Shown piece by piece: positions 2,214 through 23,554 of a stretch of 64,000 nt of DNA. Position numbers and translations under genes: made by a program. Origin of the DNA: Leifsonia sp. C5G2. GTDB taxonomy: Bacteria; Actinomycetota; Actinomycetes; Actinomycetales; Microbacteriaceae. The stretch covers positions 1 to 64,000 of the forward strand of contig NZ_JABFMV010000008.1 of the NCBI RefSeq assembly GCF_013359685.1, given 5' to 3'. The notes beneath the pieces were generated by a model that saw only the letters and a program-made list of their open reading frames with translations, made no database searches and had not been told where the DNA came from. Each line of letters begins with the position of its first letter. Within the stretch, counting starts at the first letter, position 1.

Positions 2214-2221
2214 GAGGGCAC

Positions 2222-3805
2222 ATGACGAACGACGAGAGCTGGGGAGGCTTCCCGCCGCCGACCGACAAGCCGGTCTACGAGATCCCGGTGACACCCCCTG
2301 GCGCGACCGCCGCGGGCTGGGCGCCGGGGGCGGGCGCCCCACTCGGCGCCCCGCCGGTGTGGTCGGCGCCGGCGGCGTCTGCGGCGCCTGCGGACGCGGC
2401 GCCGGCCGCGCCCGTCGTCCCCGAGCAGCAGGCTCCGCCTCAGCCCGCGTCCCCTGCAGCCCCCGCTCCCGCACCCGCCGCTGCCGCGCCGGTCTGGGAC
2501 CTGTCCGATCACACCCCCGTCGCTCGGCTCGTGCCGGGCGGGCGGCGAGCGGCCCAGCTGCAGGAGGCCACCGTCGCGGCTGGAGCGGCGGAACCCCGCA
2601 CGTTCGACGAGGACACGTCGACGCTCACGCCGGCGGAACGCGAAGCGCTCGACCGCGCCGACCCGGAGCTGGTGGCCGCGCTCCGCGAGGTGGTGCTGCA
2701 GAGGGCGTCCGACCTCCACGTCACGGTGGGCGCCCCGCCGATGGTCCGGATCGACGGCGCGCTCACGCCTGCCGTGGCCGGAGCGCCGTGGGGGACCGAG
2801 CGCACTCTGGAGGCCCTGATGAGTCTCCTCACGGACCGCCAGAAGGAACTCTTCCGGCGCGAACTCGAACTCGACTTCGCCTTCACGATCTCGGCCAACT
2901 CCCGCTTCCGTGTGAACCTGTATCAGCAGCGCGGTTCGGTCGGCGCGGCCTTCCGCCTCATCCCGACGGAGATCAAGCAGCTGCGCGAGCTCGGTGTCCC
3001 GGAGCAGATCGCGCGGTTCGCCACGCTCCCGCGCGGTCTCGTGCTCGTGACGGGTCCCACCGGTTCCGGCAAGTCGACCACCCTGGCGGCCCTCGTCGAC
3101 CTCGTGAACTCGACCCGCGCCGACCACATCGTGACGGTCGAGGACCCGATCGAGTTCATGCACACCCACAAGAAGTCGATCGTCAACCAGCGCGAAGTCG
3201 GGCACGACACCCACAGCTTCAACAACGCGCTGAAGCACGTGCTGCGCCAGGACCCCGACGTCATCCTGATCGGAGAGCTCCGCGACCTGGAGACGATCTC
3301 CGTCGCGCTGACCGCCGCCGAGACCGGCCACCTGGTCTTCGCCACGCTGCACACGCAGGACGCCCCGCAGACCATCGACCGCGTCATCGACGTCTTCCCG
3401 CCCCACCAGCAGGGCCAGGTGCGCGCCCAGCTCGCCGCGACGCTGCAGGGCGTCGTCTGCCAGACGCTCGTCAAGCGGGCGTCGGGACGAGGCCGCGCCG
3501 TCGCCACCGAGGTGCTCATGATGACCCCGGCGATCGCGAACCTCATCCGCGAGGGCAAGACCTACCAGATCGCGTCGGCGATGCAGGCCGGGCGCGGGGA
3601 CGGGATGCACACGATGGACCAGCACCTCGCCGACCTCGTCGACAGCGGCGTCATCACGCGCACCGCGGCGCTGGAGAAGGCGCACGACCTGGAAAGCATC
3701 AACCGCCTCATCCAGAGGGCCGACTCGCCAACGGACGCCTCAGCGGCAGCATTCGCCGCGAGTGAGCCCGACTTCGGCGACACCTTCTCGGGGCAGGTGC
3801 GCTGA
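2222..3805 (+). CDS. pilT: Type IV pilus retraction ATPase PilT with Pro/Ala-rich N-terminus
   Basis: ATPase that drives pilus depolymerisation and twitching. The protein has 527 residues. About the first 140 are low-complexity, rich in Pro and Ala and likely disordered; the PilT core follows. Walker A GPTGSGKS lies at about 278-285, Walker B as VILIGELRD near 347, and the diagnostic PilT motif appears as AIANLIREGK near 437 with GMHTMDQHL after it. No tetracysteine is present, unlike pilB. ATG start with AGGAGG just upstream. The stop overlaps the pilC start (TGATG). Typical PilT is about 350 residues, so the N-terminal extension is the odd feature. Confidence 0.93.
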   Translation: MTNDESWGGFPPPTDKPVYEIPVTPPGATAAGWAPGAGAPLGAPPVWSAPAASAAPADAAPAAPVVPEQQAPPQPASPAAPAPAPAAAAPVWDLSDHTPVARLVPGGRRAAQLQEATVAAGAAEPRTFDEDTSTLTPAEREALDRADPELVAALREVVLQRASDLHVTVGAPPMVRIDGALTPAVAGAPWGTERTLEALMSLLTDRQKELFRRELELDFAFTISANSRFRVNLYQQRGSVGAAFRLIPTEIKQLRELGVPEQIARFATLPRGLVLVTGPTGSGKSTTLAALVDLVNSTRADHIVTVEDPIEFMHTHKKSIVNQREVGHDTHSFNNALKHVLRQDPDVILIGELRDLETISVALTAAETGHLVFATLHTQDAPQTIDRVIDVFPPHQQGQVRAQLAATLQGVVCQTLVKRASGRGRAVATEVLMMTPAIANLIREGKTYQIASAMQAGRGDGMHTMDQHLADLVDSGVITRTAALEKAHDLESINRLIQRADSPTDASAAAFAASEPDFGDTFSGQVR

Positions 3806-5031
3806 TGGCCGGAACGGGCACCTACGCCTATCGAGGCCGGGATGCGGAGGGCAAGGTCGTCAAGGGCCGCATCGATGCGCCCGGGGAGTCGGCCGTCGCG
3901 TCACGACTGCGCACGATGGGACTGTCGCCCATCTCCATCGAGGAGGCGCCGGAGGCGACAGGGCTCAATCGTGAGATCAACCTGGGATTCGGTTCCGGGG
4001 TCAAGCTCAAGGACCTCGCGATCATGAGCCGTCAGATGGCGACGATGATCGGTTCCGGTCTGTCCATCCTGCGCACGCTCAACATCGTCGCGGAGCAGAC
4101 CGAGAACAAGAAGCTGGCCGGGATCATGGGACACGTCCGCGACGACGTCGAGTCCGGTATCGCGATCTCCGACGCGATGAGGAGGCACGGGGATGTCTTC
4201 CCGCCGCTCATGGTGAACATGATCCGTGCGGGCGAGACCGGCGGCTTCCTCGACGCCTCTCTCGAATCGGTAGCCGAGAACTTCGAGAAGGAGGTCAAGC
4301 TCCGCGGAACCATCAAGTCGGCGCTGACCTACCCCGTCATCGTGCTGGTGATGTCGCTGGTGGCGGTCGTCGCGATGCTGCTGTTCATCGTTCCCGTCTT
4401 CGAGAACATGTTCAAAGGCCTCGGCGGCCAGCTGCCGCTTCCGACCATGATCCTCGTCGAGATGTCGCACCAGATGGTGTGGGTCGCGCCCGTGTTGCTG
4501 ATCGCGACGATCGTCGGCGCCATCTGGTGGTCGCGCAACAAGAACACGGAGAACGTGCGAAGACGCGTGGACCCGATCAAGCTGCGGGTGCCCGTCTTCG
4601 GCACGCTGCTGAAGAAGATCGCCGTCGCCCGGTTCAGCCGCAATTTCGCGAACATGATCGGCGCCGGCGTCCCGATCCTGCAGGCGCTGAAGATCGTGGG
4701 CGAGACCAGCGGGAACTGGGTGATCGAGAACGCCCTTGTGAAGGTCGCCGAGTCGGTGCGTCAGGGCGAGTCGATCGCGGGACCGCTGGCGGAGCAGCCG
4801 GTGTTCCCCTCGATGGTCGTGCAGATGATCGCGGTCGGCGAGGACTCCGGGTCGCTGGAGACCATGCTGAACAAGATCGCCGATTTCTACGACCAGGAGG
4901 TCGCGTCGGCGACCGAGCAGCTGACCGCCATGATCGAGCCGCTGATGATCGCCTTCCTCGGCGTTGTGATCGGCGGCATGGTGATCGCCCTCTACATGCC
5001 GATCTTCCAGATCTCCAGCCTGGTCAAGTGA
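3805..5031 (+). CDS. pilC: Type IV pilus inner-membrane platform protein PilC (GspF family)
   Basis: Integral membrane platform that couples the PilB/PilT motors to the pilin pool. The 408 residues contain the usual two GspF repeats. Each has a cytoplasmic helical bundle (MSRQMATMIGSGLSILRTL in the first, RFSRNFANMIGAGVPILQAL in the second) followed by hydrophobic segments, near 165-195 and 215-235 and at 375-405. The N-terminal YAYRGRDAEGKVVKG is typical of the family. It starts by TGATG overlap with pilT and is the last gene before a 178-base gap with a long hairpin. Confidence 0.95.
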   Translation: MAGTGTYAYRGRDAEGKVVKGRIDAPGESAVASRLRTMGLSPISIEEAPEATGLNREINLGFGSGVKLKDLAIMSRQMATMIGSGLSILRTLNIVAEQTENKKLAGIMGHVRDDVESGIAISDAMRRHGDVFPPLMVNMIRAGETGGFLDASLESVAENFEKEVKLRGTIKSALTYPVIVLVMSLVAVVAMLLFIVPVFENMFKGLGGQLPLPTMILVEMSHQMVWVAPVLLIATIVGAIWWSRNKNTENVRRRVDPIKLRVPVFGTLLKKIAVARFSRNFANMIGAGVPILQALKIVGETSGNWVIENALVKVAESVRQGESIAGPLAEQPVFPSMVVQMIAVGEDSGSLETMLNKIADFYDQEVASATEQLTAMIEPLMIAFLGVVIGGMVIALYMPIFQISSLVK

Positions 5032-5062
5032 CCGGTAACACAGCCGCTGTCACTCATTCGGG

Positions 5063-5117
5063 GAATCCCCACAACTGGGGCGGATTATCACACTAATTGC
5101 CCCCATTTGTGGGATTC
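5063..5117. promoter_or_regulatory. Long inverted repeat between pilC and the major pilin gene
   Basis: The left arm GAATCCCCACAACTGGGG (5063-5080) pairs with CCCCATTTGTGGGATTC (5101-5117), with one bulge and one mismatch around a 20-base AT-rich loop. Lacking a downstream T-tract, it is either an imperfect terminator for pilBTC or a stable 5' stem that protects a separately transcribed or processed pilin mRNA. The region 5118-5209 is relatively AT-rich and may hold a pilin promoter, but I cannot name a clear -10/-35 pair. Confidence 0.55.
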
Positions 5118-5209
5118 TCTCGGGAATTTCGCAACAAATACCATCCAAACAGCCGGACGGGGACTCGCACCGATCGGCGTCCGCATCTCCCGACCGATTG
5201 GAAACTGCA

Positions 5210-5662
5210 ATGTACTTCCGCCTCATGGGCAAGCTCAACGCCCGCCGCAAGGGCCTGCTGGAGCAGGACGAGAAGGGCTTCACCCTGATCGAGCTCCTCG
5301 TGGTGGTCATCATCATCGGCATCCTGGCCGCGATCGCCATCCCGGTCTACCTGGGCATCCAGGACAGCGCGAAGGACTCCGGCACGAAGTCGGACCTCAC
5401 CAACGCCAAGACCGCCATCGTCGCGTGGATGAACGACAACCCCGGCAAGGCCTACACGGACGCCGTCGTGGTCGTACCGACCGCCGCGCCGCCCACGGCC
5501 GACCAGTCGAAGTACGGCGCGACGTTCAGCGACAACACCACGTCGATCACACCGAACGCGACGGCGACCGGGTTCTGCCTCGAGGGCGTCAGCAAGAGCT
5601 CGGGCGCCAAGCACTTCAAGATCACGGACTCCGCCGGCGTCGCCGAAGGCACCTGTTCGTAA
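5210..5662 (+). CDS. pilA: Major type IV pilin (prepilin)
   Basis: A 150-residue prepilin. The type III signal is basic and ends EKG, followed by FTLIELLVVVIIIGILAAIA: cleavage between Gly and Phe, Glu at mature position 5, and a hydrophobic N-terminal alpha helix. The mature pilin is about 127 residues. Two Cys near the C-terminus (in GFCLEG and in the final TCS) could close a disulfide loop. The ATG at 5210 follows a weak GGAAAC site and gives a 23-residue leader; an upstream TTG (5198) is less likely. Hairpins flank it on both sides, consistent with pilin being expressed at a higher level than the assembly genes. Confidence 0.93.
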   Translation: MYFRLMGKLNARRKGLLEQDEKGFTLIELLVVVIIIGILAAIAIPVYLGIQDSAKDSGTKSDLTNAKTAIVAWMNDNPGKAYTDAVVVVPTAAPPTADQSKYGATFSDNTTSITPNATATGFCLEGVSKSSGAKHFKITDSAGVAEGTCS

Positions 5663-5672
5663 GCACTTCCAC

Positions 5673-5707
5673 GAGAAGGGGTGCCGCATCGGCGGCGCCC
5701 CTTTCTC
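5673..5707 (+). terminator. Terminator-like hairpin after the major pilin gene
   Basis: GAGAAGGGGTGCCGC pairs, with a G-U pair, with GGCGGCGCCCCTTTCTC around a short ATC loop, just 11 bases after the pilA stop. A short T-containing stretch forms part of the 3' arm. It probably acts as a partial terminator or 3' stabilising stem, lowering read-through into the minor pilin genes. Confidence 0.6.
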
Positions 5708-5766
5708 CTCGCAGGGGGTCTGCCCCGACCGACACCACCCCCAACACCCGACACGGGAGGTGAACA

Positions 5767-7155
5767 ATGAAAGCTCTTTTCGACCGGCTCCGCACCGCGG
5801 AGTCCGGAGTCAGCCTGATCGAGGTGATCGTCGCGATGATGATCTTCGCCATCATCTCCGTCGGCGTCGCCTACTCGCTGCTTTCGGCGTTCACCATCAC
5901 CGGCGACTCACGTGCCCGCGCCGTCGCCACCAACCTCGCCGCCCAGGAGGTCGACCTCGATCGATCGTCCGGGGACTTCTTCGGCCTCCAGTCCACCCCG
6001 GCGGGCAGCCCCAAACTGGTGCAGGTCCCCGCCGGGACCGGCGTCACCTACTCGATCGCCCGCACCGTCAGCCTCGTCTACAACAGCGGAAGCGATGTGA
6101 ACTGCAACGCCTCCGCCCCCAGCTCGCTGCTCTACAAGCGCATCCACATCGCCGTCTCCTGGCCGAAGATGATCGGGCAGGCCGTCGTGGCCGACACCGT
6201 GATCGCGCCGTCGACCAAGATCAGCGTCGACACCCTCGGAACGATCCTGGTGTCCACCCGCTCGTCCGGTGGAACCCCCGTCTCCGGTGTGGGCGTCGCC
6301 GTCTCGCCGGATCCTGGCTCGGTTCCGTCCGCGACCGACTCCATGGGGTGCAGCTACGTGCTGAAGGTCCCACCGGGGACCTACACCGTGACCGTCTCGA
6401 AGTCGAACTTCCTCGACCCCTTCCAGAACGCGGCGCCGTCCACCACGGTCACGGTCAAAGCGGGTCAGAGCGCATCCGCCGGTTTCACCTACGACCAGTA
6501 CGGCACGGCGAGCTGGAGCTACCCCTCCGGCGGCACGGCCAAGCCGACCAACCTCGCTGTCAGCGCTCTCAGCACCTACGGCGTCTACAGGACCGCGGCC
6601 AGCTCGCCCGGCTCGGCCACTCTGTTCCCCTCGACCGAGTACACCATCGTCGCCGGAGCCTACTCGGCGAAGACGGACTCCAGCACCGGCTGCCTCTCGC
6701 CGAACCCGGCGGACTGGGGAACGACACCGGCCGGCGGCGGCAAGCAGCTGGTCCCCGTTGCGGCGCCCACGGCAGCCTTCGCACCGGGCGGCTCGGCCAG
6801 CATCGGGACCCTCCCTCTCAAGACCGTGACGATCACGAATGTGAGCGGGACCAGCGCCAACCTCTATCTGCGAGCCACGAGCGCAGCATCGTGGGTCGCG
6901 GGCGACCCGGGCTGCTTCGGAACCGGACTCACGCAGACGGTCGACTTCAGCGGTGCTCTGCTGGGGAAGTCCGCGGGGAGCAAGGTGACCATCCAGCTCC
7001 CGTTCGGAGCGTGGAAGCTCACCTACGGAACGACCTCGACTCCGGTCACCGCGGTCCCGGCGACCTGGATCTCGGCCCCGACGGGAGTCACCGGGATCAC
7101 GGTCGGAACGGCGGGCACCGGCACGGTCACCCTCGATCCCCGGGTGGTGCAGTGA
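5767..7155 (+). CDS. Minor pilin, PilV/GspI-like, with large C-terminal domain
   Basis: A 462-residue protein with a prepilin signal: basic leader ending ESG, then VSLIEVIVAMMIFAIISVG with Glu at mature position 5. The following ATNLAAQEVD resembles the PilV/GspI family. The rest is Ser/Thr/Gly-rich. Around residues 160-225 there is a carboxypeptidase-regulatory-like beta-sandwich pattern (VPPGTYTVTVSKSNF). Minor pilins of this kind form the pilus tip complex; the large C-terminus may be an adhesive or surface module, which is inference. An AGGTG precedes the ATG. It overlaps the next minor pilin gene (TGATG). Confidence 0.82.
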   Translation: MKALFDRLRTAESGVSLIEVIVAMMIFAIISVGVAYSLLSAFTITGDSRARAVATNLAAQEVDLDRSSGDFFGLQSTPAGSPKLVQVPAGTGVTYSIARTVSLVYNSGSDVNCNASAPSSLLYKRIHIAVSWPKMIGQAVVADTVIAPSTKISVDTLGTILVSTRSSGGTPVSGVGVAVSPDPGSVPSATDSMGCSYVLKVPPGTYTVTVSKSNFLDPFQNAAPSTTVTVKAGQSASAGFTYDQYGTASWSYPSGGTAKPTNLAVSALSTYGVYRTAASSPGSATLFPSTEYTIVAGAYSAKTDSSTGCLSPNPADWGTTPAGGGKQLVPVAAPTAAFAPGGSASIGTLPLKTVTITNVSGTSANLYLRATSAASWVAGDPGCFGTGLTQTVDFSGALLGKSAGSKVTIQLPFGAWKLTYGTTSTPVTAVPATWISAPTGVTGITVGTAGTGTVTLDPRVVQ

Positions 7156-14797: not shown

Positions 14798-14863
14798 GAC
14801 TGCGGCCTGACGGAACGTCTGTGGGTGCGCGCGCGGCCGCAGACGTTCCGAACGGCAGCAGTC
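14798..14863. repeat. Dispersed palindromic repeat, copy A
   Basis: A 66-base intergenic palindrome: outer arms GACTGC/GCAGTC, inner arms GGAACGTCTG/CAGACGTTCC, and a GC-rich centre GGGTGCGCGCGCGGC. The same layout recurs at 29566, 30689 and 55445. It sits exactly between two convergent genes and overlaps the stop codon of the one on the minus strand, so it could also serve as a bidirectional terminator. It resembles REP-type elements in size and structure. Confidence 0.75.
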
Positions 14864-17800
14864 AGACCCGCACGCGGGTGGGGAGGGACGCGTCCACCAG
14901 CGGCACCTGCACGCGAGTGAACCCGCCCTTCTGGATGAGGACGCCGCGGCCGGGAGGGAACTCGGACCGGTTCAGCCGGGGCAGCGGGGTCTTCAGCAGC
15001 AGGTCGCCCTCGATCGAATCCGGCTGCAGCAGCAGGCCGCGGCGGCCGTTCTTCACCTCGCCGAGCAGCGGCCACGACGTGCCCCACGCGCTCGTCTCCG
15101 CCTCGGCGACGAGCAGGTGGTCGCTGCGGCGCACCGCACGCACGAGCTCCACGATGGGGGAGTCGGCGGGGGTCTGCAGGAAGTCCCCGATGCTCTCCAC
15201 GAACACCGCGATCCGGCCCTCGGTGTCCGGGTCGGCGATGGCGGCGGTCAGGTCCTTGGCGAGCTCGGCGGCGTCGGCGGGCGTCAGCGCGCGGTCGGTC
15301 CACAGTCCGGAGCCGGCGAGCGGCGAGCGGGCCGACCCGACGTAGTAGAGGCGCGTCTCGGCGTCGAACCGGGCGACGGCGTCGGCGATCGCCGCGAGGG
15401 CCGTGGTCCGGCCGCTCGCGGGCGGACCGGCGAGCAGCAGCGTGCCGGTCGGGTCGAAGCCCTGCGGCCCGAGGTCGCTGTCCCCGATGCCGAGCACCGG
15501 CTTCCCGCCGATGCTGTCGGGCAGCGACGCCGGGTCCAGCTCCTTCGGCATGGAGCCGACGACCGGCGCGTGCGGGATGCCGGCGCGCTCCATCGCCTCG
15601 GCGAGCCGGCGGATCGCCTCCGACTGGTCGGCGACGGCGCGCGAGCCGCCCAGCACCGCGACCTGCGTCTCGTAGCCGTCGACGATGGCGCGGCCGGGCG
15701 GGGAGGCGGGCGAGAGGATGTCGCTCGGCACGTCGAGCATCCCGTACCCGTCGTCGGCGAGGCGCAGCACGACTCGGCGCTGCACGAGCGACCCGATCGC
15801 GGTCGGCACCGCGCCCGCGCGGTCGCCGGTGAGGGCGACGTGCATGCCGAGGCGGCGGCCGTCGGCGAGGAGGTCGCGGAACACGTCGTACCACTGCGAC
15901 CGCCCGGCCGGGATCTCGAAGTCCTCGCGGAAGCTGGGGAACCCGTCGACGAGCAGCAGGATGCGCGGCTCGTCGAGCCGCCCGGTCAGCGACCGGTACT
16001 CGGTGATGTTCGACGCGTTCGCCTCGGCGAAGCGCGGGCCGCGGTCCTCCAGCGTCTCCTTGAGCATCCGGAAGAGGCGGATGATCCGCTCCGGGTCGTC
16101 GCCCGGGATGATCGAGCCGACGTGCGGCAGCTTCTCCAGCATCCGGAGGCTGCCCGCGCCGAAGTCGAGTCCGTAGACGTGCACGGGGCCGCCGCGCGGG
16201 GTGATCGCCGCGGCCGAGGCGAGCGTGCGCAGCACGGTCGACTTGCCCGAACCGCCGGTGCCGTAGACGGCCAGGTTGCCGTCGACGTCCGGCTGGAAGT
16301 ACACGGGCCGCTGCTCCTGGCGGTCCGGGATGTCGGAGACTCCGAGCAGCAGTTCGGCGTCGGTGCGCTGCCGCAGCAGCCCGAGGTCGTAGGCGGTGGC
16401 CAGCTCGTCGAGCCACGGCCGGCGCGGCGCGGGGATGTGCGCGGCCGTCTGGGCGCGGACGATGGACGCGACCAGCCGCTGCTGGTCGGTCGGCCCGAGG
16501 TCGCGCTCCGGCTCCTCGGCCGGGCGCTCCTCCTCCCAGCGCACCTCGCCGCCGAACCGCAGCTCGGCGATCTCGACGCCCGCGCGCTCCGGCTCGCGCG
16601 TGGTCCAGCCGCCGGCGTAGGCCGACTGGAACCGGACCAGGCGGGCTGGCCCGGTCTTCGCCATCCCGCGTCCGGGGATGGACGGGTCGAAGTGCGCCGC
16701 GTCGGACACCCCGACGACGTCCTGGCTGTCCGACTCGTCGGCCATCCGCAGAGCGATGCGCAGGTTGGTGTTGGCGCGCAGGTTGTCCTTGATCACGCCG
16801 GCCGGGCGCTGGGTGGCCATGATCAGGTGGATGCCGAGAGAGCGTCCGCGCTGCGCGATGTCGACCACGCCGTCCACGAACTCGGGCACCTCGCCGACGA
16901 GCGCCGCGAACTCGTCGATCACGAGCACCAGGGCGGGCGGGCTGTCCGGGTCGCCGCGCTTCTCCAGCTCCAGCAGGTCCTTCGCCTTCTTGCGGTTGAG
17001 CAGGTGCTCCCGGTGGTGCAGCTCGGCTCGGAGGCTGGTGAGCGCCCGGCGGACGAGGTGCGGACTGAGGTCGGTCACCAGGCCCACGCAGTGCGGGAGG
17101 CTGACGCAGTCCGCGAAGGCCGAACCGCCCTTGTAGTCCACGAACAGGAAGGTGACCCGGTCGGGGCTGTACTCCGCCGCCATCCCGAGCACCCACGCCT
17201 GCAGGAACTCGCTCTTTCCCGCGCCGGTGGTGCCGCCGACGAGCGCGTGCGGGCCCTGGGTGCGCAGGTCGAGGTGCATGGCGTCGACGCCGGCGGAGCC
17301 GATGGTCGCGCGCAGCGTGCCCGGACGCCGCCGTGCGGGCTTAGCGCCCGGCGTGCGGTCGTGGATGGACGCGTTCTGCCGCCAGCGGTCGACGACGGCG
17401 CTCGAAGTCTCGGCCAGTTCGTGCCCGAGCAGGGTGACGAGCGACACGGAGCGGGGCAGGTCGCTCGCGTCGGCGACGAGCGCTCCGGCGTCGATGACCG
17501 GCGCCATCCGCTTCGCGTAGTCGAGGGCGGTGGCCGCCGAGACGGGCTCGGTGACGACGTCCTCCACCGTCTCGCCGATCCGCACGAACCCGGCGCGGGC
17601 GCGGTGCGGCTGGTCGGTGTGCTGCAGGAAGGTGCGGCACACGGCGGGGAGCCGGTGCACGTCCTCCGAGATCCAGACCGGGAAGACGCCGGCATCCGCG
17701 GCCGCCTCGGCCAGCTGCACCAGGCGGGCGCGGTCGACGGCGACGTCGTCGGAGATGATGACGACGACCGCAGGCACGGGCGAGGGGGTGCCGTCGGTGG

Positions 17801-19376
17801 TCTGCGAGCGGCCGACGTCGGCACCGCGCTCCAGGGCGGCGCGCTCCTGCTCCATCGCGCCGCGGCGCTGCGGGCCGCCCTTCGCGGCCGCGAGCCGCTC
17901 CTCCACGAGCCCCTCCAGCGCACTGAGCACGCCTGCGGCGCTCGAGGCGGAGTCGGCCAGGTGGCCGCCGGGCAGTGGGCTGTGCGGCGAGGAGGTGTGC
18001 GGCATCCACTTGAGCCAGGTGAGCTCGCGCGACCAGCGCGGCGACACCAGCGCGGCGACGGCCAGTTCAGCGGGGGAGTGCAGGGAGGTCAGCTGCACCA
18101 GAACGGAGTTCACGGAGCCGGCGATGAGGTCGGGAGGACCGGCGATGCCCAGCGCGCCCGACTCGTACAGGTTGTCGAGCACCGGGACGTCGTCGACGCG
18201 CTCGTTCTCGGCGATCACGGCGTCCAGCCGTTCCTGGAACTCCACGATCAGTTCGCCGCGGTCGGTCGTCTGGACGGTGTTGCGCGAGCGCATCGACCCG
18301 CGGCCGAGCTGCAGGTTGAGGAACGACCAGTGCTCCGGCCGCCTGGTCCACAGCAGCTGACCGCGCCGCACGGCCTCGGAGAGCGCGTCGGCGGTGGTCG
18401 GGGTCTCGGCCTGGCGCAGTTCGACCTCGGTGCGGCGCTCCTCCTGCAGCTTTGTGGAGAGCGCCTCCAGGCGCTGCTCGAACACCGCGATCTGCTTCTT
18501 CAGCTTGCGCTTCCCGCGCGTACGGCCGGTGATGTAGTTGCCGATGAGCATGACCGGCGACAGCAGCACGAACAGCAGCGTCGTGGGCTGGTGGGTGAGC
18601 GCGAACATCGCGCCGCCGAGCAACAGCGGGGTGATCATCGCCAGCAGCGGGAAGGGCGGGTCGTCCTTCTCGCCCGGCACGTCGGGGGCCTGGAACACCT
18701 GGCCGGCGTAGCGCCGCTCGACCCGGGGCGAACGGTTGAAGAACACCGGGCCGGAGGTCGGGGTCGCGGCGGGCAGCTCCGACGCGGCCTTCACCTCCAG
18801 CTCCACCTCCGTCTCGCCGATCAGCAGCGTCTCCGAGCGCCGCACGGTGAACCGCGTGACGAGGCCGCCGTCGACCATGACGCCGTTCGCCGAGCCGAGG
18901 TCGACGACCTCCACGCCGTCGGCCGCCTCGAACCGCACGTGGCGCTTCGAGATCAGGGGATCCTGCAGCACGATGTCGCAGGTCTCGTCGCGGCCCAGCA
19001 CCGTGCTTCCGGCGCGCAGCGGGAACTCGGTGCCCGCCTGCGGGCCGGAGAGCACCCGCAGCGTCGCGACCACCGGCACGTCGCCGAGCTCGGGGGAGGC
19101 GTAGTGGAGGCCGGCGTCGGCGAGGGCGACCGTCGCACCGCTGCCGATCCATGCCTCGCCGACGGGGGCGTCGGGCGGCAGCACGAGCGGCTCGGCCTGT
19201 CCCGGCAGCTGCGCCCGCAGGGTCAGCGCGCCGGGCGCGGCGATCGGTCCGGTGCGCCGCGGGTCGATGCGGGCGATCGTCGCCGCGACCTCGGAGATGC
19301 TGGCGGCGGCGTCCGCGGTGACGACGATGTCATCGCTCGTGCCGGACGGGCGGGCGAGAGTCAGTTTCAGTCGCAC
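14862..19376 (-). CDS. Type VII secretion FHA-FtsK/SpoIIIE ATPase (EssC/EccC type)
   Basis: Central motor of WXG100/ESX-like secretion. The 1504 residues contain an FHA domain (about 105-190: GRDE, ISKRH and NG are the phosphothreonine-binding residues), two transmembrane helices (about 242-282), and three FtsK-like ATPase modules. Walker A motifs are GGTTGAGKS near 713, GTGGSGKST near 1037, and GPPASGRTT near 1315, where the Lys is replaced by Arg. Only the first module has a clear Walker B with catalytic Glu (LVIDEF). The FHA-TM-three-ATPase order is like Firmicute EssC. The GTG start lies 6 bases after TATGGT, so the message may be leaderless. Divergent from a WXG100-like gene. Confidence 0.92.
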   Translation of the reverse strand: MRLKLTLARPSGTSDDIVVTADAAASISEVAATIARIDPRRTGPIAAPGALTLRAQLPGQAEPLVLPPDAPVGEAWIGSGATVALADAGLHYASPELGDVPVVATLRVLSGPQAGTEFPLRAGSTVLGRDETCDIVLQDPLISKRHVRFEAADGVEVVDLGSANGVMVDGGLVTRFTVRRSETLLIGETEVELEVKAASELPAATPTSGPVFFNRSPRVERRYAGQVFQAPDVPGEKDDPPFPLLAMITPLLLGGAMFALTHQPTTLLFVLLSPVMLIGNYITGRTRGKRKLKKQIAVFEQRLEALSTKLQEERRTEVELRQAETPTTADALSEAVRRGQLLWTRRPEHWSFLNLQLGRGSMRSRNTVQTTDRGELIVEFQERLDAVIAENERVDDVPVLDNLYESGALGIAGPPDLIAGSVNSVLVQLTSLHSPAELAVAALVSPRWSRELTWLKWMPHTSSPHSPLPGGHLADSASSAAGVLSALEGLVEERLAAAKGGPQRRGAMEQERAALERGADVGRSQTTDGTPSPVPAVVVIISDDVAVDRARLVQLAEAAADAGVFPVWISEDVHRLPAVCRTFLQHTDQPHRARAGFVRIGETVEDVVTEPVSAATALDYAKRMAPVIDAGALVADASDLPRSVSLVTLLGHELAETSSAVVDRWRQNASIHDRTPGAKPARRRPGTLRATIGSAGVDAMHLDLRTQGPHALVGGTTGAGKSEFLQAWVLGMAAEYSPDRVTFLFVDYKGGSAFADCVSLPHCVGLVTDLSPHLVRRALTSLRAELHHREHLLNRKKAKDLLELEKRGDPDSPPALVLVIDEFAALVGEVPEFVDGVVDIAQRGRSLGIHLIMATQRPAGVIKDNLRANTNLRIALRMADESDSQDVVGVSDAAHFDPSIPGRGMAKTGPARLVRFQSAYAGGWTTREPERAGVEIAELRFGGEVRWEEERPAEEPERDLGPTDQQRLVASIVRAQTAAHIPAPRRPWLDELATAYDLGLLRQRTDAELLLGVSDIPDRQEQRPVYFQPDVDGNLAVYGTGGSGKSTVLRTLASAAAITPRGGPVHVYGLDFGAGSLRMLEKLPHVGSIIPGDDPERIIRLFRMLKETLEDRGPRFAEANASNITEYRSLTGRLDEPRILLLVDGFPSFREDFEIPAGRSQWYDVFRDLLADGRRLGMHVALTGDRAGAVPTAIGSLVQRRVVLRLADDGYGMLDVPSDILSPASPPGRAIVDGYETQVAVLGGSRAVADQSEAIRRLAEAMERAGIPHAPVVGSMPKELDPASLPDSIGGKPVLGIGDSDLGPQGFDPTGTLLLAGPPASGRTTALAAIADAVARFDAETRLYYVGSARSPLAGSGLWTDRALTPADAAELAKDLTAAIADPDTEGRIAVFVESIGDFLQTPADSPIVELVRAVRRSDHLLVAEAETSAWGTSWPLLGEVKNGRRGLLLQPDSIEGDLLLKTPLPRLNRSEFPPGRGVLIQKGGFTRVQVPLVDASLPTRVRV

Positions 19377-19490
19377 CTCTGCACCATACCCAGAACAGCC
19401 GATTCCGGTGGATGGGGACCCCTCCCCATCGATTCCCCGCTGGCCCACAGGTACGTTTGCTTTCGGCAGGATGACCGAAGGGGAGGAACC
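19377..19490. promoter_or_regulatory. Divergent promoter region of the type VII island
   Basis: The 114 bases between the ATPase gene (leftward) and the WXG100-like gene (rightward). On the minus strand TATGGT (complement of 19383-19388) lies 6 bases before the GTG. On the plus strand TACGTT (19452-19457) is a candidate -10. Both are about 22-23 bases from the edges of a central dyad at 19412-19429, the distance at which a factor bound next to the -35 position could act on both promoters. Consensus -35 boxes are absent on both sides, which fits an activator. Confidence 0.5.
19412..19429. promoter_or_regulatory. Candidate operator, ATGGGGA-N4-TCCCCAT, copy 1
   Basis: The bases ATGGGGACCCCTCCCCAT form a 7+4+7 dyad. 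An element with identical arms and spacing lies at 23148-23165 upstream of the second WXG100-like gene; I noticed no third copy in the window. The recurrence in both divergent promoters of this island supports a shared regulator, which is not identifiable from the window. Confidence 0.6.
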
Positions 19491-19781
19491 GTGGCCGATC
19501 TCGTACTCAAGCTCGACGAGCTGGTGCAGCTGCGCGACGATCTCGACGCCGTGGTGCGCGAGTTCCAGAACGCCGACGACTTCAGCGACTCGGTCGCCGA
19601 GGCGACGGGCCACGATGATCTGCACGACCACGTCCGGGACTTCGCGCACAAGTGGAACGAGAAGCGCAAGGACATGACCGAGAACGTGAAGAACGTGCAG
19701 CAGGTCATCGCCGCCGTCGCCGACAACTTCGTCAAGGTGGACGGCGACCTCGCCAAAGCCCTCGATGAGAAGAAGAAGTAG
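19491..19781 (+). CDS. WXG100/ESAT-6-like protein
   Basis: A 96-residue, almost entirely helical and charged protein with a central break around HKWNEKRK, where the conserved Trp of a WXG-type helical hairpin would sit. Small size, two-helix pattern and position directly divergent from the FHA-FtsK ATPase support a secreted or partner ESAT-6-like role. The C-terminal tail DEKKK lacks an obvious YxxxD signal. GTG start with GGAGG 4 bases upstream. Sixteen bases separate it from the next gene, so they are probably co-transcribed. Confidence 0.72.
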   Translation: MADLVLKLDELVQLRDDLDAVVREFQNADDFSDSVAEATGHDDLHDHVRDFAHKWNEKRKDMTENVKNVQQVIAAVADNFVKVDGDLAKALDEKKK

Positions 19782-19796
19782 GGGAGCGCAGGAGAA

Positions 19797-21146
19797 GTGA
19801 GCGACCGCGAATTCCAGCCGCTGACCGGCGACCCCGGAGTGCTCGAGGCCAAGGCCCAGCACTACAAGTCGATCGGCGAGGCCATCCAGCGCTCCGTCAA
19901 GGAGCTCAACAAGATCCACGACGTCGAGGGCTACAAGTCGCAGGCCGTGTCGAAGCTCAAGGAGATGTCGAAGGACACCGCCGACGACATCGACAAGGCC
20001 AAGGACCGCTACACCACGACCGCCGACGCGCTGCTCGCCTACGCGAAGGAGCTGCGCGGCGCGCAGGACGACGCCACCGCCGCGATCACGCAGATCACCG
20101 AGAAGCAGGAGGCCGCGGACGCGGCCCACCACGCGGCGACCACCGCGCACACCGACGCGCAGAAGGCCAAGCCGGAGGACGCGAGCACCGCGGGAAAGGC
20201 GGCCGACAAGGCCGACGACCACGCCCGCGCGGCGAACGCGGCCCTGCAGGCCGCCCACCAGGCCTGGTACGACGCCCGCGACCGCAAGAACCGCGCCGCA
20301 GAGAAGGCCGTGAGCGCGATCGTGGACGTGGTCGACCACCACAACAACGGCCTCAAGAACCCGAGCTGGTGGGACAAGGTGGTGGATGTCATCGGCACGA
20401 TCGGCGACATCGCCGGCGTGCTCGCCATCTTCCTGGCGTGGGTGCCCATCCTCGGCCAGGTGCTCGTCGTGATCGCGCTGGTCGCCTCCATCGTCAAGCT
20501 GGTGGATGCGGTCGTGAAGTTCGCCAACGGGGAGGGGAGCTTCCTCTCGGTGCTCGGCGCCGCCGTCACCGTCGTGCTCAGCATCTTCGGCGGACGGATC
20601 TTCTCGTTCCTCGGCAAGGCGGCCCGCATCAAGGCGCTTGCCCGCGCGCCGAGGCTCGTCGGCGGCGTCCGCACCAGCCCGAACTCCATCCTGAAGATGC
20701 AGATGGGCAAGCGCGCCATGAAGCTGGCGACGAAGAACCTGTTCAAGAACCCGGCCAAGGACCTGAACGTCTGGAAGAGCGCAGGCGAGTCGGCCGCGGC
20801 GCAGCGCGAGGCGTACAAGGCACTGGTCACCGACGGCGCCGACAAGGCGAAGGCCATGCGTGCGCTCCTGGGCATCGACCAGAACGTGGTGAAGGCGGTC
20901 TCGCACGACCTCAGCGCGAAGGAGTTCAACCCGCTGACCGCGGTCGCCGCGTATCACCAGGGCTCTGCGCTGGTGAACAAGGGCATCGACCTCGTCAACG
21001 TGCCGGGTAAGGTCGATTCGATCGTCAACAAGTTCGACGGCGGACCGAACCATACCGACCTTCCTCAGATCAAGAACATCGATCTGCAGAAGTGGGCCAC
21101 CGACGGCGCCGACAAGGTCGCGCCGATCTATCTGCCGTCGAAGTGA
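19797..21146 (+). CDS. Candidate type VII secretion substrate with central membrane-active segment
   Basis: A 449-residue protein. The N-terminal 200 residues are helical and charged, starting with FQPLTGDPGVLEAKAQHY, a pattern like the secretion-signal region of actinobacterial T7SS-associated proteins, and continuing as a coiled-coil stalk rich in Ala, Asp and Lys. A hydrophobic segment spans about 205-275 (IGTIGDIAGVLAIFLAWVPI and following), with a basic C-terminal part after it. No signal peptide and no recognisable enzyme motif. The overall plan resembles LXG/WXG-type polymorphic proteins without a known toxin domain. Gene order places it with the island; substrate status is inference. 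GTG start after GGAGAA. Confidence 0.6.
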   Translation: MSDREFQPLTGDPGVLEAKAQHYKSIGEAIQRSVKELNKIHDVEGYKSQAVSKLKEMSKDTADDIDKAKDRYTTTADALLAYAKELRGAQDDATAAITQITEKQEAADAAHHAATTAHTDAQKAKPEDASTAGKAADKADDHARAANAALQAAHQAWYDARDRKNRAAEKAVSAIVDVVDHHNNGLKNPSWWDKVVDVIGTIGDIAGVLAIFLAWVPILGQVLVVIALVASIVKLVDAVVKFANGEGSFLSVLGAAVTVVLSIFGGRIFSFLGKAARIKALARAPRLVGGVRTSPNSILKMQMGKRAMKLATKNLFKNPAKDLNVWKSAGESAAAQREAYKALVTDGADKAKAMRALLGIDQNVVKAVSHDLSAKEFNPLTAVAAYHQGSALVNKGIDLVNVPGKVDSIVNKFDGGPNHTDLPQIKNIDLQKWATDGADKVAPIYLPSK

Positions 21147-21157
21147 GGGGAGCGGGC

Positions 21158-21781
21158 ATGACGCTGCGGCCACAGGACATCGTCGACTTCACCTTCGATG
21201 CGCCCGACGGCTGGTTCGACGTGGAGCTCCTGAGCGACCACGGCAGCGACGACTGGCCGGAGCGGCTGGCGGCGCAGCTCTCGGCCGGGGAGCCGACCGA
21301 GAAGGAGCTGGCGGAGCGCTTCCGCGCGCTGCAGCAGCTGCTCCACTCGGAGGACCCGACCGGCGCCACCCGCGCCCGCGTCTACGTGCCCGTGCCGGCG
21401 GCCGGGGTGCTGAACGCGTTCCAGACCTACGAGCTGCTGCAGCTGGAGGTGGACGACAGCCCCGAGAGCTACCTCGCCGCGACCGACGCGGAGGGCGACC
21501 ACCGCGAGCCTGGCTACGAGATCCTGGGCTACCGGTCCTGGCGCACGGCCCACGCGACGGGCGAGCTCGTCGGCTTCACCCACCTCACAGCCCTCGCTGA
21601 CGAGGACGCGGGAGACGCCCTGCTCGAGCAGCGCGTCGTCTTCGCCGTCTTCCCGGTCGGCTCGGCGCAGGCCGTGCAGTTCGTGTTCCGCTCGGCGTTC
21701 ATCGGCGGGTTCGCCGACATGGTCGCCGAGACGCAGGCGATCGCCGACTCCCTGCGCGTCACGTTGGGGGAGTTCGCATGA
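21158..21781 (+). CDS. Type VII island protein, possibly LpqN/PsbP-like fold, unknown function
   Basis: A 207-residue soluble protein without a signal peptide. It starts with an FDAPDGWFDVEL-type strand and ends with a FADMVAETQAIADSLRV helix. This F-P-GW start and terminal amphipathic helix recall the Mog1/PsbP/LpqN fold family, but I cannot confirm the assignment. It lies 11 bases after the candidate substrate gene and overlaps the next gene by ATGA, so these form one operon. A chaperone or immunity-like role for the neighbouring substrate is possible, on context only. Confidence 0.6.
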   Translation: MTLRPQDIVDFTFDAPDGWFDVELLSDHGSDDWPERLAAQLSAGEPTEKELAERFRALQQLLHSEDPTGATRARVYVPVPAAGVLNAFQTYELLQLEVDDSPESYLAATDAEGDHREPGYEILGYRSWRTAHATGELVGFTHLTALADEDAGDALLEQRVVFAVFPVGSAQAVQFVFRSAFIGGFADMVAETQAIADSLRVTLGEFA

Positions 21782-22386
21782 CCGACGCCCGGTTCACCTC
21801 GCTCGACGAGGAGCTGACGATCGTCTTCCCCGGCACCTGGGTCATGGTGCCGCTGCACGACGAGGAGGCCGCGCGCCGACGCATCCAGCGCCTGGTGACC
21901 GACCGGGTCGGCCGTGCCGACCGGCTGGCGCGCGTCCGGCGCACGGCGAAGACCGAGCTGGAGCGGCTGGTCGCCCTGGCCGACGACAGCACGGCGTTCG
22001 CGCTCGCACTGTCGCTCGAGATCCTCCCGGGCGTGCCGTTCCCCGCCTCCATCGTGCTGTCGCGCGAGGAGTGGCCGACGACTCCCGGCCCGGACGAGGA
22101 CCTCGCCACGCACCTGGCCCGCTGCTTCCCCGACGACACGGCCCTCGAGCTGTCCATCGGCCCGACGCGGCGCCGCTCCGTGCTCCGCCAGACCACCTAC
22201 GACGAGGAGTCTGCGCCCGAGCTGATCGCGGACTACCGGTTCGCCGCGCCCGGAGCCGAGCGTGTCATCCACGCCAGGATCAACGCCCCGATGGTGGCCG
22301 ACGCCGAGCTCTACCTGGAGCTGTTCGACGCGATGATCGACTCGATCAGCTTCCGGCGGCCGCTCGCGGAGCCGGCCGGCCGCTGA
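21778..22386 (+). CDS. Type VII island protein, second member of the LpqN/PsbP-like pair
   Basis: A 202-residue soluble protein. It shares the general plan of its upstream neighbour: an early beta strand with FPGTWVMVPL, an alpha/beta middle, and a terminal LFDAMIDSISF helix. The two may be distant paralogues; identity is low by eye. It starts within the stop of the previous gene (ATGA). Its 3' end overlaps by 41 bases with the convergent membrane protein gene. Function unknown. Confidence 0.6.
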   Translation: MTDARFTSLDEELTIVFPGTWVMVPLHDEEAARRRIQRLVTDRVGRADRLARVRRTAKTELERLVALADDSTAFALALSLEILPGVPFPASIVLSREEWPTTPGPDEDLATHLARCFPDDTALELSIGPTRRRSVLRQTTYDEESAPELIADYRFAAPGAERVIHARINAPMVADAELYLELFDAMIDSISFRRPLAEPAGR

Positions 22387-23101
22387 CCCGCTGCCGGAAG
22401 GCGCGCACGAGCAGCGCGACGGTCGCGACGACGAGCGCCGCGACCACGACCCCCCACACGGCCGTCCCGACCGGGCCGGGGGTGTAGAGCCAGCCGGCGG
22501 CCGCGAACGTGGCGAGACCGTACGGGTAGCCCGCGACGAACAGCGCGCGGCTGGGCCGCCAGCCGAGCAGCATCAGGTCGGTCCAGAAGCGCGTCCACGG
22601 CGTCAGCCGCACCGGGAGCAGCGAGAGCGCCGTCGCGCCGATGGAGGGCGGTCCGATGACGTTGCGGGACCATCCCGTGCTGGAGAGACGCTCGCCCGCG
22701 TAGCGCGGCGACAGGCTGCGCACGACGTACGTCCACGACAGCACCGCGAGCGGGATGGACGCGAGCGGCAGGGCGACGAAGGCGTACCCGAGCAGCGGCA
22801 CCAGGACGACCAGGGCGAACACCGCGAACAGCAGCACGGGCAGCACGGCGCCGCCGGCCACGAGATCCTGCGCGCTGCGGTCGGGGTTGGTGCTCCACAG
22901 CCCGAACGGGAGGGCGGCGGGAAGCAGCAGCGTGATCGCGCCGAGGGCCGTCCACACCACGGCGATCAGCAGGTAGCCGAACGGGCGCAGTGCCCGCCCG
23001 ACGGCCGAGGGCGGCGTCGCGGCCCGGTCGGAGCGGGGGCGCCGCGTCGCGCGGGCGGCGGCGGAGTTCCTGTTCGGCTTCATCGGGCTGTACGACGGCA
23101 T
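22346..23101 (-). CDS. Membrane protein divergent from the second WXG100-like gene
   Basis: A 251-residue protein with a basic, Arg-rich N-terminal tail and about five transmembrane segments (near 45-65, 80-98, 100-125, 183-205 and 215-240). I do not recognise a family. The ATG at 23101 is preferred because TAGCCT ends 7 bases before it, the arrangement of a leaderless start; an internal ATG at 23083 is the alternative, and neither has a Shine-Dalgarno site. Its promoter faces away from the WXG100-like gene at 23258 across the second operator dyad, so it may be part of the secretion island. Confidence 0.65.
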   Translation of the reverse strand: MPSYSPMKPNRNSAAARATRRPRSDRAATPPSAVGRALRPFGYLLIAVVWTALGAITLLLPAALPFGLWSTNPDRSAQDLVAGGAVLPVLLFAVFALVVLVPLLGYAFVALPLASIPLAVLSWTYVVRSLSPRYAGERLSSTGWSRNVIGPPSIGATALSLLPVRLTPWTRFWTDLMLLGWRPSRALFVAGYPYGLATFAAAGWLYTPGPVGTAVWGVVVAALVVATVALLVRAFRQRVSGRPAPRAAAGS

Positions 23102-23147
23102 GGCTGCCAGGCTATCCCGCTGGCCCTGCGCCGTCACGCCGGAGCGG

Positions 23148-23165
23148 ATGGGGAGTGCTCCCCAT
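23148..23165. promoter_or_regulatory. Candidate operator, ATGGGGA-N4-TCCCCAT, copy 2
   Basis: ATGGGGAGTGCTCCCCAT, with the same arms and spacing as 19412-19429. On the plus strand a -10-like TTAGGT (23188-23193) begins 22 bases after it, matching copy 1 within one base. On the minus strand TAGCCT (complement of 23109-23114) lies 33 bases away, one helical turn further. The flank on the left is GG in both copies. Confidence 0.6.
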
Positions 23166-23257
23166 TCCGTCCTCCGCCGGGTCCTGGTTAGGTGGACGTA
23201 GCTGGTCGGCCCCGGGGGTACGGCCTCTCTCGAACAAACGAAGGGAAATGGACCGCC

Positions 23258-23554
23258 ATGGCCAACATGAACGTCACGTACGGCGAGATGACCGATGCCG
23301 CCAACCGCCTCACCGCGGGCAAGGACGACATCACCGCGAAGCTGCACGAGCTCCAGAACCTGGTGAACGGACTCGTCAACGGCGGCTTCGTCACCGACCA
23401 GGCGTCCGGCGCCTTCCACACCTCCTACGAGCAGTTCACCAAGGGCACCACCGACGCGGTGAACGGCCTCGACGGGATGTCGCAGTTCCTCACCAAGGCG
23501 GCGGACGCCCTGCAGAACGTCGACAGCGAGCTCGCCAAGGGCATCGGCGGCTGA
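23258..23554 (+). CDS. WXG100 family protein (ESAT-6-like)
   Basis: A 98-residue protein with the WXG100 helical hairpin pattern. The first helix runs to about 40, the turn region is FVTDQASGAFHTSYEQF, and the second helix ends QNVDSELAKGIGG. In the turn the usual Trp-x-Gly is degenerate, but the following A-F-x-x-x-Y-x-x-F spacing matches ESAT-6 homologues. The ATG at 23258 begins MANMNVTYGEM, a typical start. The distant AAGGGA site (23241-23246) is 11 bases upstream. A strong terminator follows, so this gene is transcribed alone. Confidence 0.82.
   Translation: MANMNVTYGEMTDAANRLTAGKDDITAKLHELQNLVNGLVNGGFVTDQASGAFHTSYEQFTKGTTDAVNGLDGMSQFLTKAADALQNVDSELAKGIGG

What the first reader, a model, noticed from the sequence alone, without database searches (positions are those of the whole stretch)
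19412..23165. Same 18-bp operator in both divergent promoters of the type VII island
ATGGGGA-N4-TCCCCAT occurs at 19412-19429 and 23148-23165. Each copy lies between a WXG100-like gene and a divergently read gene (the FHA-FtsK ATPase; a membrane protein). On the WXG100 side the candidate -10 box begins 22 bases after the dyad in both cases. On the other side the distance is 23 and 33 bases, one helical turn apart. No consensus -35 boxes are seen, which suggests an activator bound near the -35 position. I know of no described regulator with this site.
Basis: partly seen in the sequence, partly recalled or inferred. Interest (0 to 1): 0.75.

Follow-up and report, generated by a model that had tools for sequence, protein, structure and literature searches.

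The report
Shared switch for type VII secretion
An 18-letter DNA palindrome marks promoters of a bacterial protein-export system in many actinobacteria related to Leifsonia, and it goes together with one unnamed gene switch that probably binds it and turns the system on.

Summary
ATGGGGA-N4-TCCCCAT occurs exactly at both places and once more in the 4.09 Mb genome (a Leifsonia, judged by named relatives; reversed control 0). The third copy lies between an unnamed FHA/winged-helix regulator gene and a large Ig/Fn3 surface-protein gene, in a PP2C-FHA-kinase-regulator-Fn3-MoxR-DUF58 cluster.

Dyad and regulator go together. Own genus (one mismatch allowed): 16 of 16 regulator genomes have it, 1 of 12 others. 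Exact dyad: 74 of 78 dyad genomes in a family sample and 79 of 80 in an order sample carry the regulator.

Among 112 distinct fetched sites (224 flanks) TAnnnT starts 22, 23 or 24 bases from the dyad on 54, 32 and 12 flanks; control about 0.1 per position. 44 of 79 sites precede a WXG100-like gene. In 7 of 7 Brachybacterium loci the regulator precedes EccC.

Best explanation: operator of a type VII secretion regulon, bound at about -43.5 by the FHA-winged-helix protein as a class II activator, perhaps tuned by the neighbouring kinase and phosphatase. Binding, activation and phospho-control are inferred. EspM is nearest in design; its family model does not match. Ten searches of open-access papers showed no description of it.

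The parts
19412..19429 (.). Operator 1, ATGGGGACCCCTCCCCAT
   Evidence: a dyad (up to 2 mismatches) stands before the ATPase gene in 15 of 17 Leifsonia orthologue loci L042-L058; the misses are G018 and G022
23148..23165 (.). Operator 2, ATGGGGAGTGCTCCCCAT
   Evidence: in 14 Leifsonia loci taken at this dyad the WXG100 side has T[AT]NNNT at 22 or 23 in 14 of 14 (presence of the dyad is by construction there)
19452..19457 (+). Candidate -10 box TACGTT of the WXG-like gene, 22 bases from operator 1
   Evidence: peak at 22-24 over 112 sites
19383..19388 (-). Candidate -10 box TATGGT of the FHA-FtsK ATPase gene, 23 bases from operator 1; the start codon follows 6 bases later, so probably leaderless
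   Evidence: 22 or 23 in 15 of 15 Leifsonia loci that have the dyad there
23188..23193 (+). Candidate -10 box TTAGGT of the WXG100 gene, 22 bases from operator 2
23109..23114 (-). Candidate -10 box TAGCCT of the membrane-protein gene, 33 bases from operator 2; the start codon follows 7 bases later, so probably leaderless
14862..19376 (-). EssC/EccC-type ATPase with N-terminal FHA domain (1504 aa)
19491..19781 (+). WXG100-like small protein (96 aa)
   Evidence: weak alone; iterative profile
19797..21146 (+). Probable substrate with T7SS_signal domain PF21725 (449 aa)
   Evidence: E 2.2e-9
21158..21781 (+). Unnamed protein P4 (207 aa), same direction, probably same transcript (inferred)
   Evidence: no Pfam hit
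21778..22386 (+). Unnamed protein P5 (202 aa), same direction, probably same transcript (inferred)
   Evidence: no Pfam hit
22346..23101 (-). Protein of 251 aa, membrane protein as read from its sequence, divergent from the WXG100 gene
   Evidence: no Pfam hit
23258..23554 (+). WXG100 protein (98 aa), TsdA/EsxA-like
   Evidence: PF06013 E 2.1e-15

Best explanation
The dyad is the operator of a type VII secretion (T7SS) regulon. Its binding protein is most likely the 253-aa FHA-winged-helix protein encoded beside the third copy (own genome contig C10; L007:9065-9823, not in the window). A dimer would bind the two half sites at about -52 to -35 (centre about -43.5). There it would contact RNA polymerase as a class II activator and make up for a poor -35 box, at the ATPase, WXG-like, WXG100 and Fn3-gene promoters. 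At the membrane-protein promoter it would sit one helical turn further up. The regulator gene lies just downstream of PP2C, FHA and Ser/Thr-kinase genes on the same strand. The simplest input is therefore threonine phosphorylation read by its FHA domain. Shown: operator, conservation, promoter geometry, co-occurrence, gene neighbourhood. Inferred: binding, dimer, activation, phospho-signal. Rough odds: T7SS operator 0.95; this regulator 0.85; activator rather than repressor 0.75; phospho-input 0.5.
For: Three exact copies in the genome, reversed control 0. Third copy directly between regulator and Fn3 genes. Genus: dyad (up to 1 mismatch) in 16 of 16 regulator genomes and 1 of 12 others. Family: 74 of 78 dyad genomes have the regulator; by genus, of 85: both 28, dyad only 2, regulator only 10, neither 45. 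Order: 79 of 80; 1.86 sites per regulator genome (124) against 0.006 per other genome (173). Only the N4 spacing occurs: 41 copies (repeats of one genome not removed), none for N0-N3 or N5-N12, in 1.55 Mb fetched by regulator. -10 peak at 22/23/24: 54/32/12 of 224 flanks. Symmetrical double changes beside the regulator, ATGGGC-A-N4-T-GCCCAT, in 2 of 42 loci (L035, L094). WXG100-like gene within 300 bp at 44 of 79 sites; PF06013 in 32 of 105 flanking proteins from 58 of 60 loci. Model: beta sandwich with FHA matches in PDB (6ccd, E 2.1e-5), then helices in winged-helix order. Regulator next to EccC in 9 of 80 named loci, 7 of them Brachybacterium.
Against: No binding or expression data. 37 of 111 family genomes and 45 of 124 order genomes with the regulator have no exact dyad, so the site varies or the protein has other targets. 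Beside the regulator gene itself a dyad (up to 2 mismatches) is missing in 14 of 42 genus and family loci and in 25 of 30 loci of the order set. 18 of 79 sites have neither a WXG100 nor a known cluster gene next to them; 11 of these 18, flgB (three), flgN and TetR (two) among them, also lack the -10 box, 7 have it. In all 20 of 112 sites lack a box at 22-24. The FHA part has GR, H and N-x-G invariant in 41 of 41 but no serine where canonical FHA domains contact phosphate (the canonical pattern is recalled), so phosphothreonine binding is doubtful. Model confidence is moderate (pLDDT 74, pTM 0.46). Pfam finds neither FHA nor a convincing HTH; no HTH structure is among the 50 Foldseek hits shown, which besides FHA domains hold SMAD/IRF beta sandwiches and a few odd chains. 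Co-occurrence p-values are not corrected for relatedness.
Confidence: 0.72

Rival explanations
1. Same operator and same regulator, but a repressor: the bound protein covers the -35 region and keeps the T7SS off until a kinase signal releases it, as EspM represses whiB6 in mycobacteria.
For: The dyad abuts the -35 position, where many repressors sit (recalled). EspM, the nearest known FHA-HTH design, is called a repressor (PMC11005418, abstract).
Against: Repression does not need a spacing to the -10 box fixed to two or three bases, nor a poor -35; both are seen. The one-turn shift to 32-33 at the membrane-protein gene also fits activators better.
Confidence: 0.2
2. The dyad is bound by another regulator that is inherited together with the T7SS and kinase module; the FHA-winged-helix protein only senses or modulates.
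For: The whole module travels together: the close Fn3 gene is in exactly the 16 genomes of 28 that have the regulator, so co-occurrence alone cannot single out one gene of the module.
Against: Among the gene products that I scanned by family in the two clusters it is the only one with a DNA-binding-like part; not every ORF was scanned. The dyad is next to its gene in 15 of 16 Leifsonia genomes with at most 2 mismatches, with symmetrical changes there.
Confidence: 0.12
3. The dyad is an RNA or terminator hairpin, or a dispersed repeat, not a protein site.
For: Site 3 lies inside a longer G+C-rich inverted repeat 26 bases downstream of the regulator stop codon. Sites 2 and 3 are 86% identical over 44 bases.
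Against: The window sites lie upstream of both divergent starts. The four spacer bases vary while the half sites and the distance to the -10 box are fixed. Flanks of site 1 show only short matches to those of sites 2 and 3; the flanks of other sites differ as read.
Confidence: 0.02
4. Chance palindromes in G+C-rich DNA.
For: With mismatches allowed, counts fall to background in this genome.
Against: Exact copies: 159 sites in 78 of 299 family genomes and 232 in 80 of 297 order genomes, against 1 reversed-pattern site in each set.
Confidence: 0.01

Closest known systems
EspM (mycobacterial ESX-1 regulator; PMC7002343, passages read)
   Same: N-terminal FHA domain, C-terminal helix-turn-helix, encoded next to a T7SS, binds an intergenic region and controls T7SS genes.
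   Different: Our regulator (253 aa) gives no hit to the EspM family NF052403 (the FHA part of the ATPase does, weakly). EspM acts on whiB6 and represses; a search of that paper's text for 'palindrom' found nothing. Ours goes with a strict dyad directly at the structural genes.
T7SSd of Actinomycetota (PMC11217815, section 9 and passages read)
   Same: WXG100 protein, FHA-bearing ATPase, Ser/Thr kinase, large Ig-like surface protein.
   Different: Split over two loci here, with PP2C, FHA, MoxR and DUF58 genes in addition. The paper's main text has no match for 'Microbacteri' and its one 'transcriptional regulator' is a LytR-like protein of T7SSi.
PFNA operon of bifidobacteria (PMC8430577, passages read)
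   Same: Kinase, fn3, AAA-ATPase, DUF58 and, in some species, prpC and fha genes.
   Different: Described as a host-signal operon; no match for 'type VII' or 'WXG' in its text. Here one paralogue of such a cluster shares an operator with a T7SS.
Class II activators such as CRP at -41.5 (recalled)
   Same: Dyad centred just upstream of or over the -35 box at a fixed distance.
   Different: Other protein family; half site ATGGGGA instead of TGTGA (recalled).
CsoR copper repressors (PMC3902906, search listing only)
   Same: G-tract pseudopalindromic operators.
   Different: CsoR is described as controlling copper efflux; no such gene was seen beside the window sites. Sequence details not compared.

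Membership tests
EspM family of FHA-HTH T7SS regulators | Sequence match to NF052403 (EspM) | tested here: not met
   no hit at E 0.1
EspM family of FHA-HTH T7SS regulators | N-terminal FHA fold | tested here: met
   Foldseek against PDB: FHA domains, best 6ccd E 2.1e-5; Pfam FHA not reached
EspM family of FHA-HTH T7SS regulators | C-terminal DNA-binding HTH | tested here: inconclusive
   helices 140-154, 167-174, 178-194, strand 201-203 and helix 211-221 in the model; HTH_8 only weakly; no HTH structure among the 50 listed Foldseek hits
T7SSd | FHA-bearing EssC-type ATPase with WXG100 gene beside it | tested here: met
T7SSd | Ser/Thr kinase component | tested here: met
   PF00069 kinase in the cluster on contig C10; on one stretch with the ATPase gene in Brachybacterium
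T7SSd | Large Ig-like surface protein with C-terminal membrane helix (TsdI) | tested here: inconclusive
   1757-aa protein with six Big_9 stretches and one fn3 domain, hydrophobic N-terminus; the C-terminus as read shows no obvious membrane helix, no topology program run
T7SSd | No ubiquitin-like (YukD/EsaB) gene | not tested
   -
T7SSd | Phylogenetic place of the ATPase | not tested
   -
PFNA-type cluster | kinase, fn3, AAA-ATPase, DUF58 and tgm genes together | tested here: inconclusive
   kinase PF00069, fn3 PF00041, AAA_3/MoxR-type PF07726 and DUF58 PF01882 are there; the gene after DUF58 was not identified (only its start was read)
Class II activator site | Site centred near -41.5 at a fixed distance from the -10 box | tested here: met
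   centre about -43.5 by the -10 boxes; transcription starts not mapped
Class II activator site | Activation depends on the bound protein | not testable with these tools
   -

The most novel reading that the evidence does not exclude
A whole lineage of actinobacterial type VII systems is run by one phosphorylation-gated regulon. An FHA-winged-helix activator, encoded with its own kinase and phosphatase, reads one strict dyad at the ATPase, WXG100, substrate and surface-protein promoters. The dyad plus a -10 box 22-24 bases away would then act as a sequence tag by which unknown T7SS substrates, and parts of kinase-Fn3 clusters, can be found anywhere in a genome.
Probability: 0.5. Interest if true: 0.82.

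Novelty: new variant of a known kind. Interest (0 to 1): 0.72.

Why it matters
Regulation of type VII secretion is known mainly from mycobacteria and a few Bacillota (recalled). Here a named protein, an 18-bp site and a fixed promoter geometry can be tested in soil bacteria. The site also ties a kinase/phosphatase/Fn3 cluster, described so far as a separate bifidobacterial operon, to a secretion machine, and it offers a DNA tag for finding substrates.

Tried and rejected
Mismatch searches in the own genome: at 2 mismatches forward and reversed patterns are equal, so the L004-L006 sites were dropped as chance. G016, G055, G249, G277 and G505 have a dyad but no regulator; the five loci fetched for them show no WXG100 within 300 bp. 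Three (L017, L109, L176) also lack the -10 box; two (L112, L116) have TTNNNT at 22 or 23. I read them as chance or as lost regulators, untested. G092 (dyad, no regulator) was not fetched. Flagellar (L160-162, L180) and TetR (L171, L174) sites lack the -10 geometry and were not counted as targets. G018 looked like a natural test (ATPase 83% identical, no regulator, no dyad), but in about 9 kb upstream of the ATPase gene none of the other island genes was found, so it is only a remnant with a -10-like box left.

Dropped before counts: G008's regulator hit (E 9e-4, 81 residues) was counted as absent although the tool's tally says 17 of 28. L073 was left out of alignment A1 because of a doubtful start. 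In one search, sites with less than 300 bases on either side and repeats of the same 138-base core were dropped. The 41 copies of the N4 spacing include repeats of one genome under two names. One search left out L058 (G022, ATPase 55% identical), which has no dyad before its ATPase gene. In one search one ORF per side was chosen by codon bias, 105 from 58 of 60 loci; ORFs of 60 aa or more starting within 300 bases were used. Genome lists for the two-by-two tables were typed from the outputs; their lengths agree with the tools' tallies.

Literature: ten searches showed no description of this operator or regulator in the listings; only open-access papers are held, and the listings are capped. 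The DNA-letter search gave 341 papers that hold both half sites somewhere; 15 titles were seen, none read. Papers: PMC11217815 section 9 and passages; PMC7002343 and PMC8430577 passages; PMC11005418 abstract and outline; all others search listings only.
Full report
OBSERVATION. The two dyads are exact and at the stated places. The genome (4,091,029 bases, 35 contigs) holds one more exact copy, and the reversed pattern has none. By base composition 0.057 copies are expected. Allowing 2 mismatches gives 6 forward and 6 reversed, so only exact copies stand out.

THE THIRD COPY. It lies on contig C10 (L007:9853-9870), 26 bases after the stop codon of a 253-aa protein and 72 bases before the likely ATG of a 1757-aa surface protein. 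The order there is PP2C phosphatase, FHA protein, Ser/Thr kinase, this protein, Ig/Fn3 protein, MoxR-type ATPase, DUF58 protein, named by family matches (PP2C_2 and NF033484, FHA, Pkinase, Big_9 and fn3, AAA_3, DUF58). The 253-aa protein has no named Pfam or NCBIfam family and no PDB sequence relative at E 1. Its model (pLDDT 74, pTM 0.46, 41 sequences) is a beta sandwich followed by helices in winged-helix order. Foldseek puts the first part with FHA domains (6ccd, E 2.1e-5). Over 41 family members the FHA residues G32, R33, H46, N63 and G65 and the stretch F181-N187 in the helix of residues 178-194 do not vary. The usual phosphate-contact serine (recalled) is not there.

CO-OCCURRENCE. Genus sample of 28: dyad with up to 1 mismatch in 17 (reversed control 3 sites in 3 genomes), a strong regulator match in 16 (a 17th, E 9e-4, was not counted). 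All 16 regulator genomes have the dyad; 1 of the 12 others does (G016), and its site has no WXG100 gene near it. Family sample of 299: exact dyad in 78 (159 sites; reversed control 1 site), regulator in 111, both in 74. By genus, of 85: both 28, dyad only 2, regulator only 10, neither 45. Order sample of 297 (it shares some genomes with the family sample): dyad in 80 (232 sites; reversed control 1), regulator in 124, both in 79. Phylum sample of 296: regulator in 12; the dyad was not counted there. Fisher p-values (1e-36, 3e-38; 6e-12 by genus; 6e-7 within the genus) are not corrected for descent.

WHICH GENE OF THE MODULE. The close Fn3 gene (69% identity or more) is in exactly the same 16 of 28 genomes, so the module is inherited as a block and co-occurrence alone does not pick the binder. 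Adjacency helps in Leifsonia: the dyad with at most 2 mismatches is beside the regulator gene in 15 of 16 loci, G022 lacking it. Further away it is less regular: beside the regulator a dyad is missing in 14 of 42 genus and family loci and in 25 of 30 order loci. In some genera it stands upstream of PP2C instead, for instance L246, L254, L256 and L272. Two of 42 loci carry symmetrical double changes, L035 ATGGGCAGCGCTGCCCAT and L094 ATGGGCAGGACTGCCCAT, which points to a dimeric binder.

GENE NEIGHBOURHOODS IN NAMED GENOMES. Of these 80 loci, 77 have the kinase, 77 the FHA gene, 73 PP2C, 69 Fn3, 52 MoxR and 52 DUF58 within the fetched stretch (some are cut by contig ends); 54 have a dyad with up to 1 mismatch there, up to 8 kb on either side. 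In 9, among them all 7 Brachybacterium loci, the regulator is followed by the EccC-type ATPase gene. In Mycetocola miduiensis the T7SS island lies beside PP2C, and island genes lie at the edge of the Plantibacter, Okibacterium and M. zhadangensis loci. The two Leifsonia loci therefore look like one system split in two.

TARGETS. Of 79 dyad sites in loci of about 3 kb, 44 have a WXG100-like ORF starting within 300 bases by an iterative profile. Ten more are the regulator-Fn3 gap of Leifsonia genomes, one precedes a Fn3-like gene (L179), one has its WXG100 gene cut off by the contig end (L115), five belong to genomes without the regulator, and 18 are unexplained; 7 of these 18 do have a -10 box at 22-24. 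By Pfam, 32 of 105 flanking proteins from 58 loci match PF06013, 2 EccD and 3 LXG. Both EccD genes (L165, L166) lie in genomes of one other family of the order (f14), so T7SSa-type loci seem to be included. Twenty further stretches with 24 dyads were taken from five multi-copy genomes; 19 of the 24 have T[AT]NNNT at 22-24, before WXG100-like, Fn3-like and small membrane proteins among others.

PROMOTER GEOMETRY. Over 45 WXG-oriented sites, TAnnnT starts 22 (26 sites) or 23 (11 sites) bases after the dyad and nowhere else in 60 bases. Over 112 distinct sites, both sides (224 flanks), the peak is 54, 32 and 12 at 22, 23 and 24; no other offset exceeds 4, and control stretches 150-216 bases away average 0.10 per offset. 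Eighty of 112 sites have T[AT]NNNT at 22/23 on at least one side and 15 on both; 20 have none at 22-24. At the ATPase gene 15 of 17 Leifsonia orthologue loci have the dyad (not G018, not G022), with TAnnnT at 22 (6) or 23 (9); in the 13 in which the start codon was matched it lies at 34-36, which implies a leaderless transcript. On the Fn3 side T[AT]NNNT lies at 22, 23 and 24 in 5, 15 and 10 cases, other offsets 3 or fewer. At the membrane-protein gene the box is at 32-33 in 8 of 9 Leifsonia loci with that gene, and at 21 in the ninth; the 5 loci without the gene have no TAnnnT there but keep the WXG side. With the first base of the box at -12, a 22-base distance puts the dyad at -52 to -35. 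A weak -35 begins where the dyad ends.

MECHANISM. Shown: site, strict spacing, geometry, conservation, partner gene. Inferred: the FHA-winged-helix dimer binds, contacts polymerase as a class II activator, and is tuned by the kinase and phosphatase beside it. A repressor is the main rival.

KNOWN RELATIVES. EspM has the same domain order, but the EspM family model does not match. The T7SS has parts of T7SSd, not tested by phylogeny. The cluster resembles PFNA. A search for 'PFNA' with 'type VII secretion' gave 0 papers. Prior description was sought in ten searches of open-access papers only.

Noticed in passing
G000:C7:11922-20567: A second T7SS-like ATPase (30% identity to the window's) with a WXG100 gene lies on another contig; no exact dyad lies there, so the regulon seems to cover only one of the two systems.
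   Followed up: partly
G000:C32:20240-21007: A paralogue of the Fn3/Ig surface protein (about 34% identity over the N-terminal part) lies elsewhere; a paralogue of 28-37% identity is in all 28 genomes of the genus, whereas the dyad-linked copy is in 16.
   Followed up: partly
L160-L162, L180: Exact dyads next to flagellar genes flgB (three genomes) and flgN (one), in genomes that carry the regulator, but without the -10 box at 22-24.
   Followed up: partly
L101:1584-2705, L308:4442-4969: Two proteins behind dyads with a -10 box look like possible secreted effectors: a WXG-type N-terminus with a calpain-like protease domain (PF00648), and a weak hit to a papain-fold glutamine deamidase (E 0.007, below the family's cut-off).
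   Followed up: partly
L007:9840-9885: Site 3 sits in a longer G+C-rich inverted repeat that could also end the regulator transcript (read).
   Followed up: no
window 22346-22386: The convergent genes P5 (+) and the membrane protein (-) overlap by 41 bases at their 3' ends.
   Followed up: no
L265 (NZ_JADHDY010000023.1): A record named Sporosarcina beigongshangi carries a Brachybacterium-like regulator-ATPase locus; probably contamination.
   Followed up: no
window 555-7155: Type IV pilus or type II secretion-like genes (pilin with GFTLIELLVVVIIIGILAAIAIP) precede the T7SS island, and ribosomal protein genes follow it; read from the translations only.
   Followed up: no
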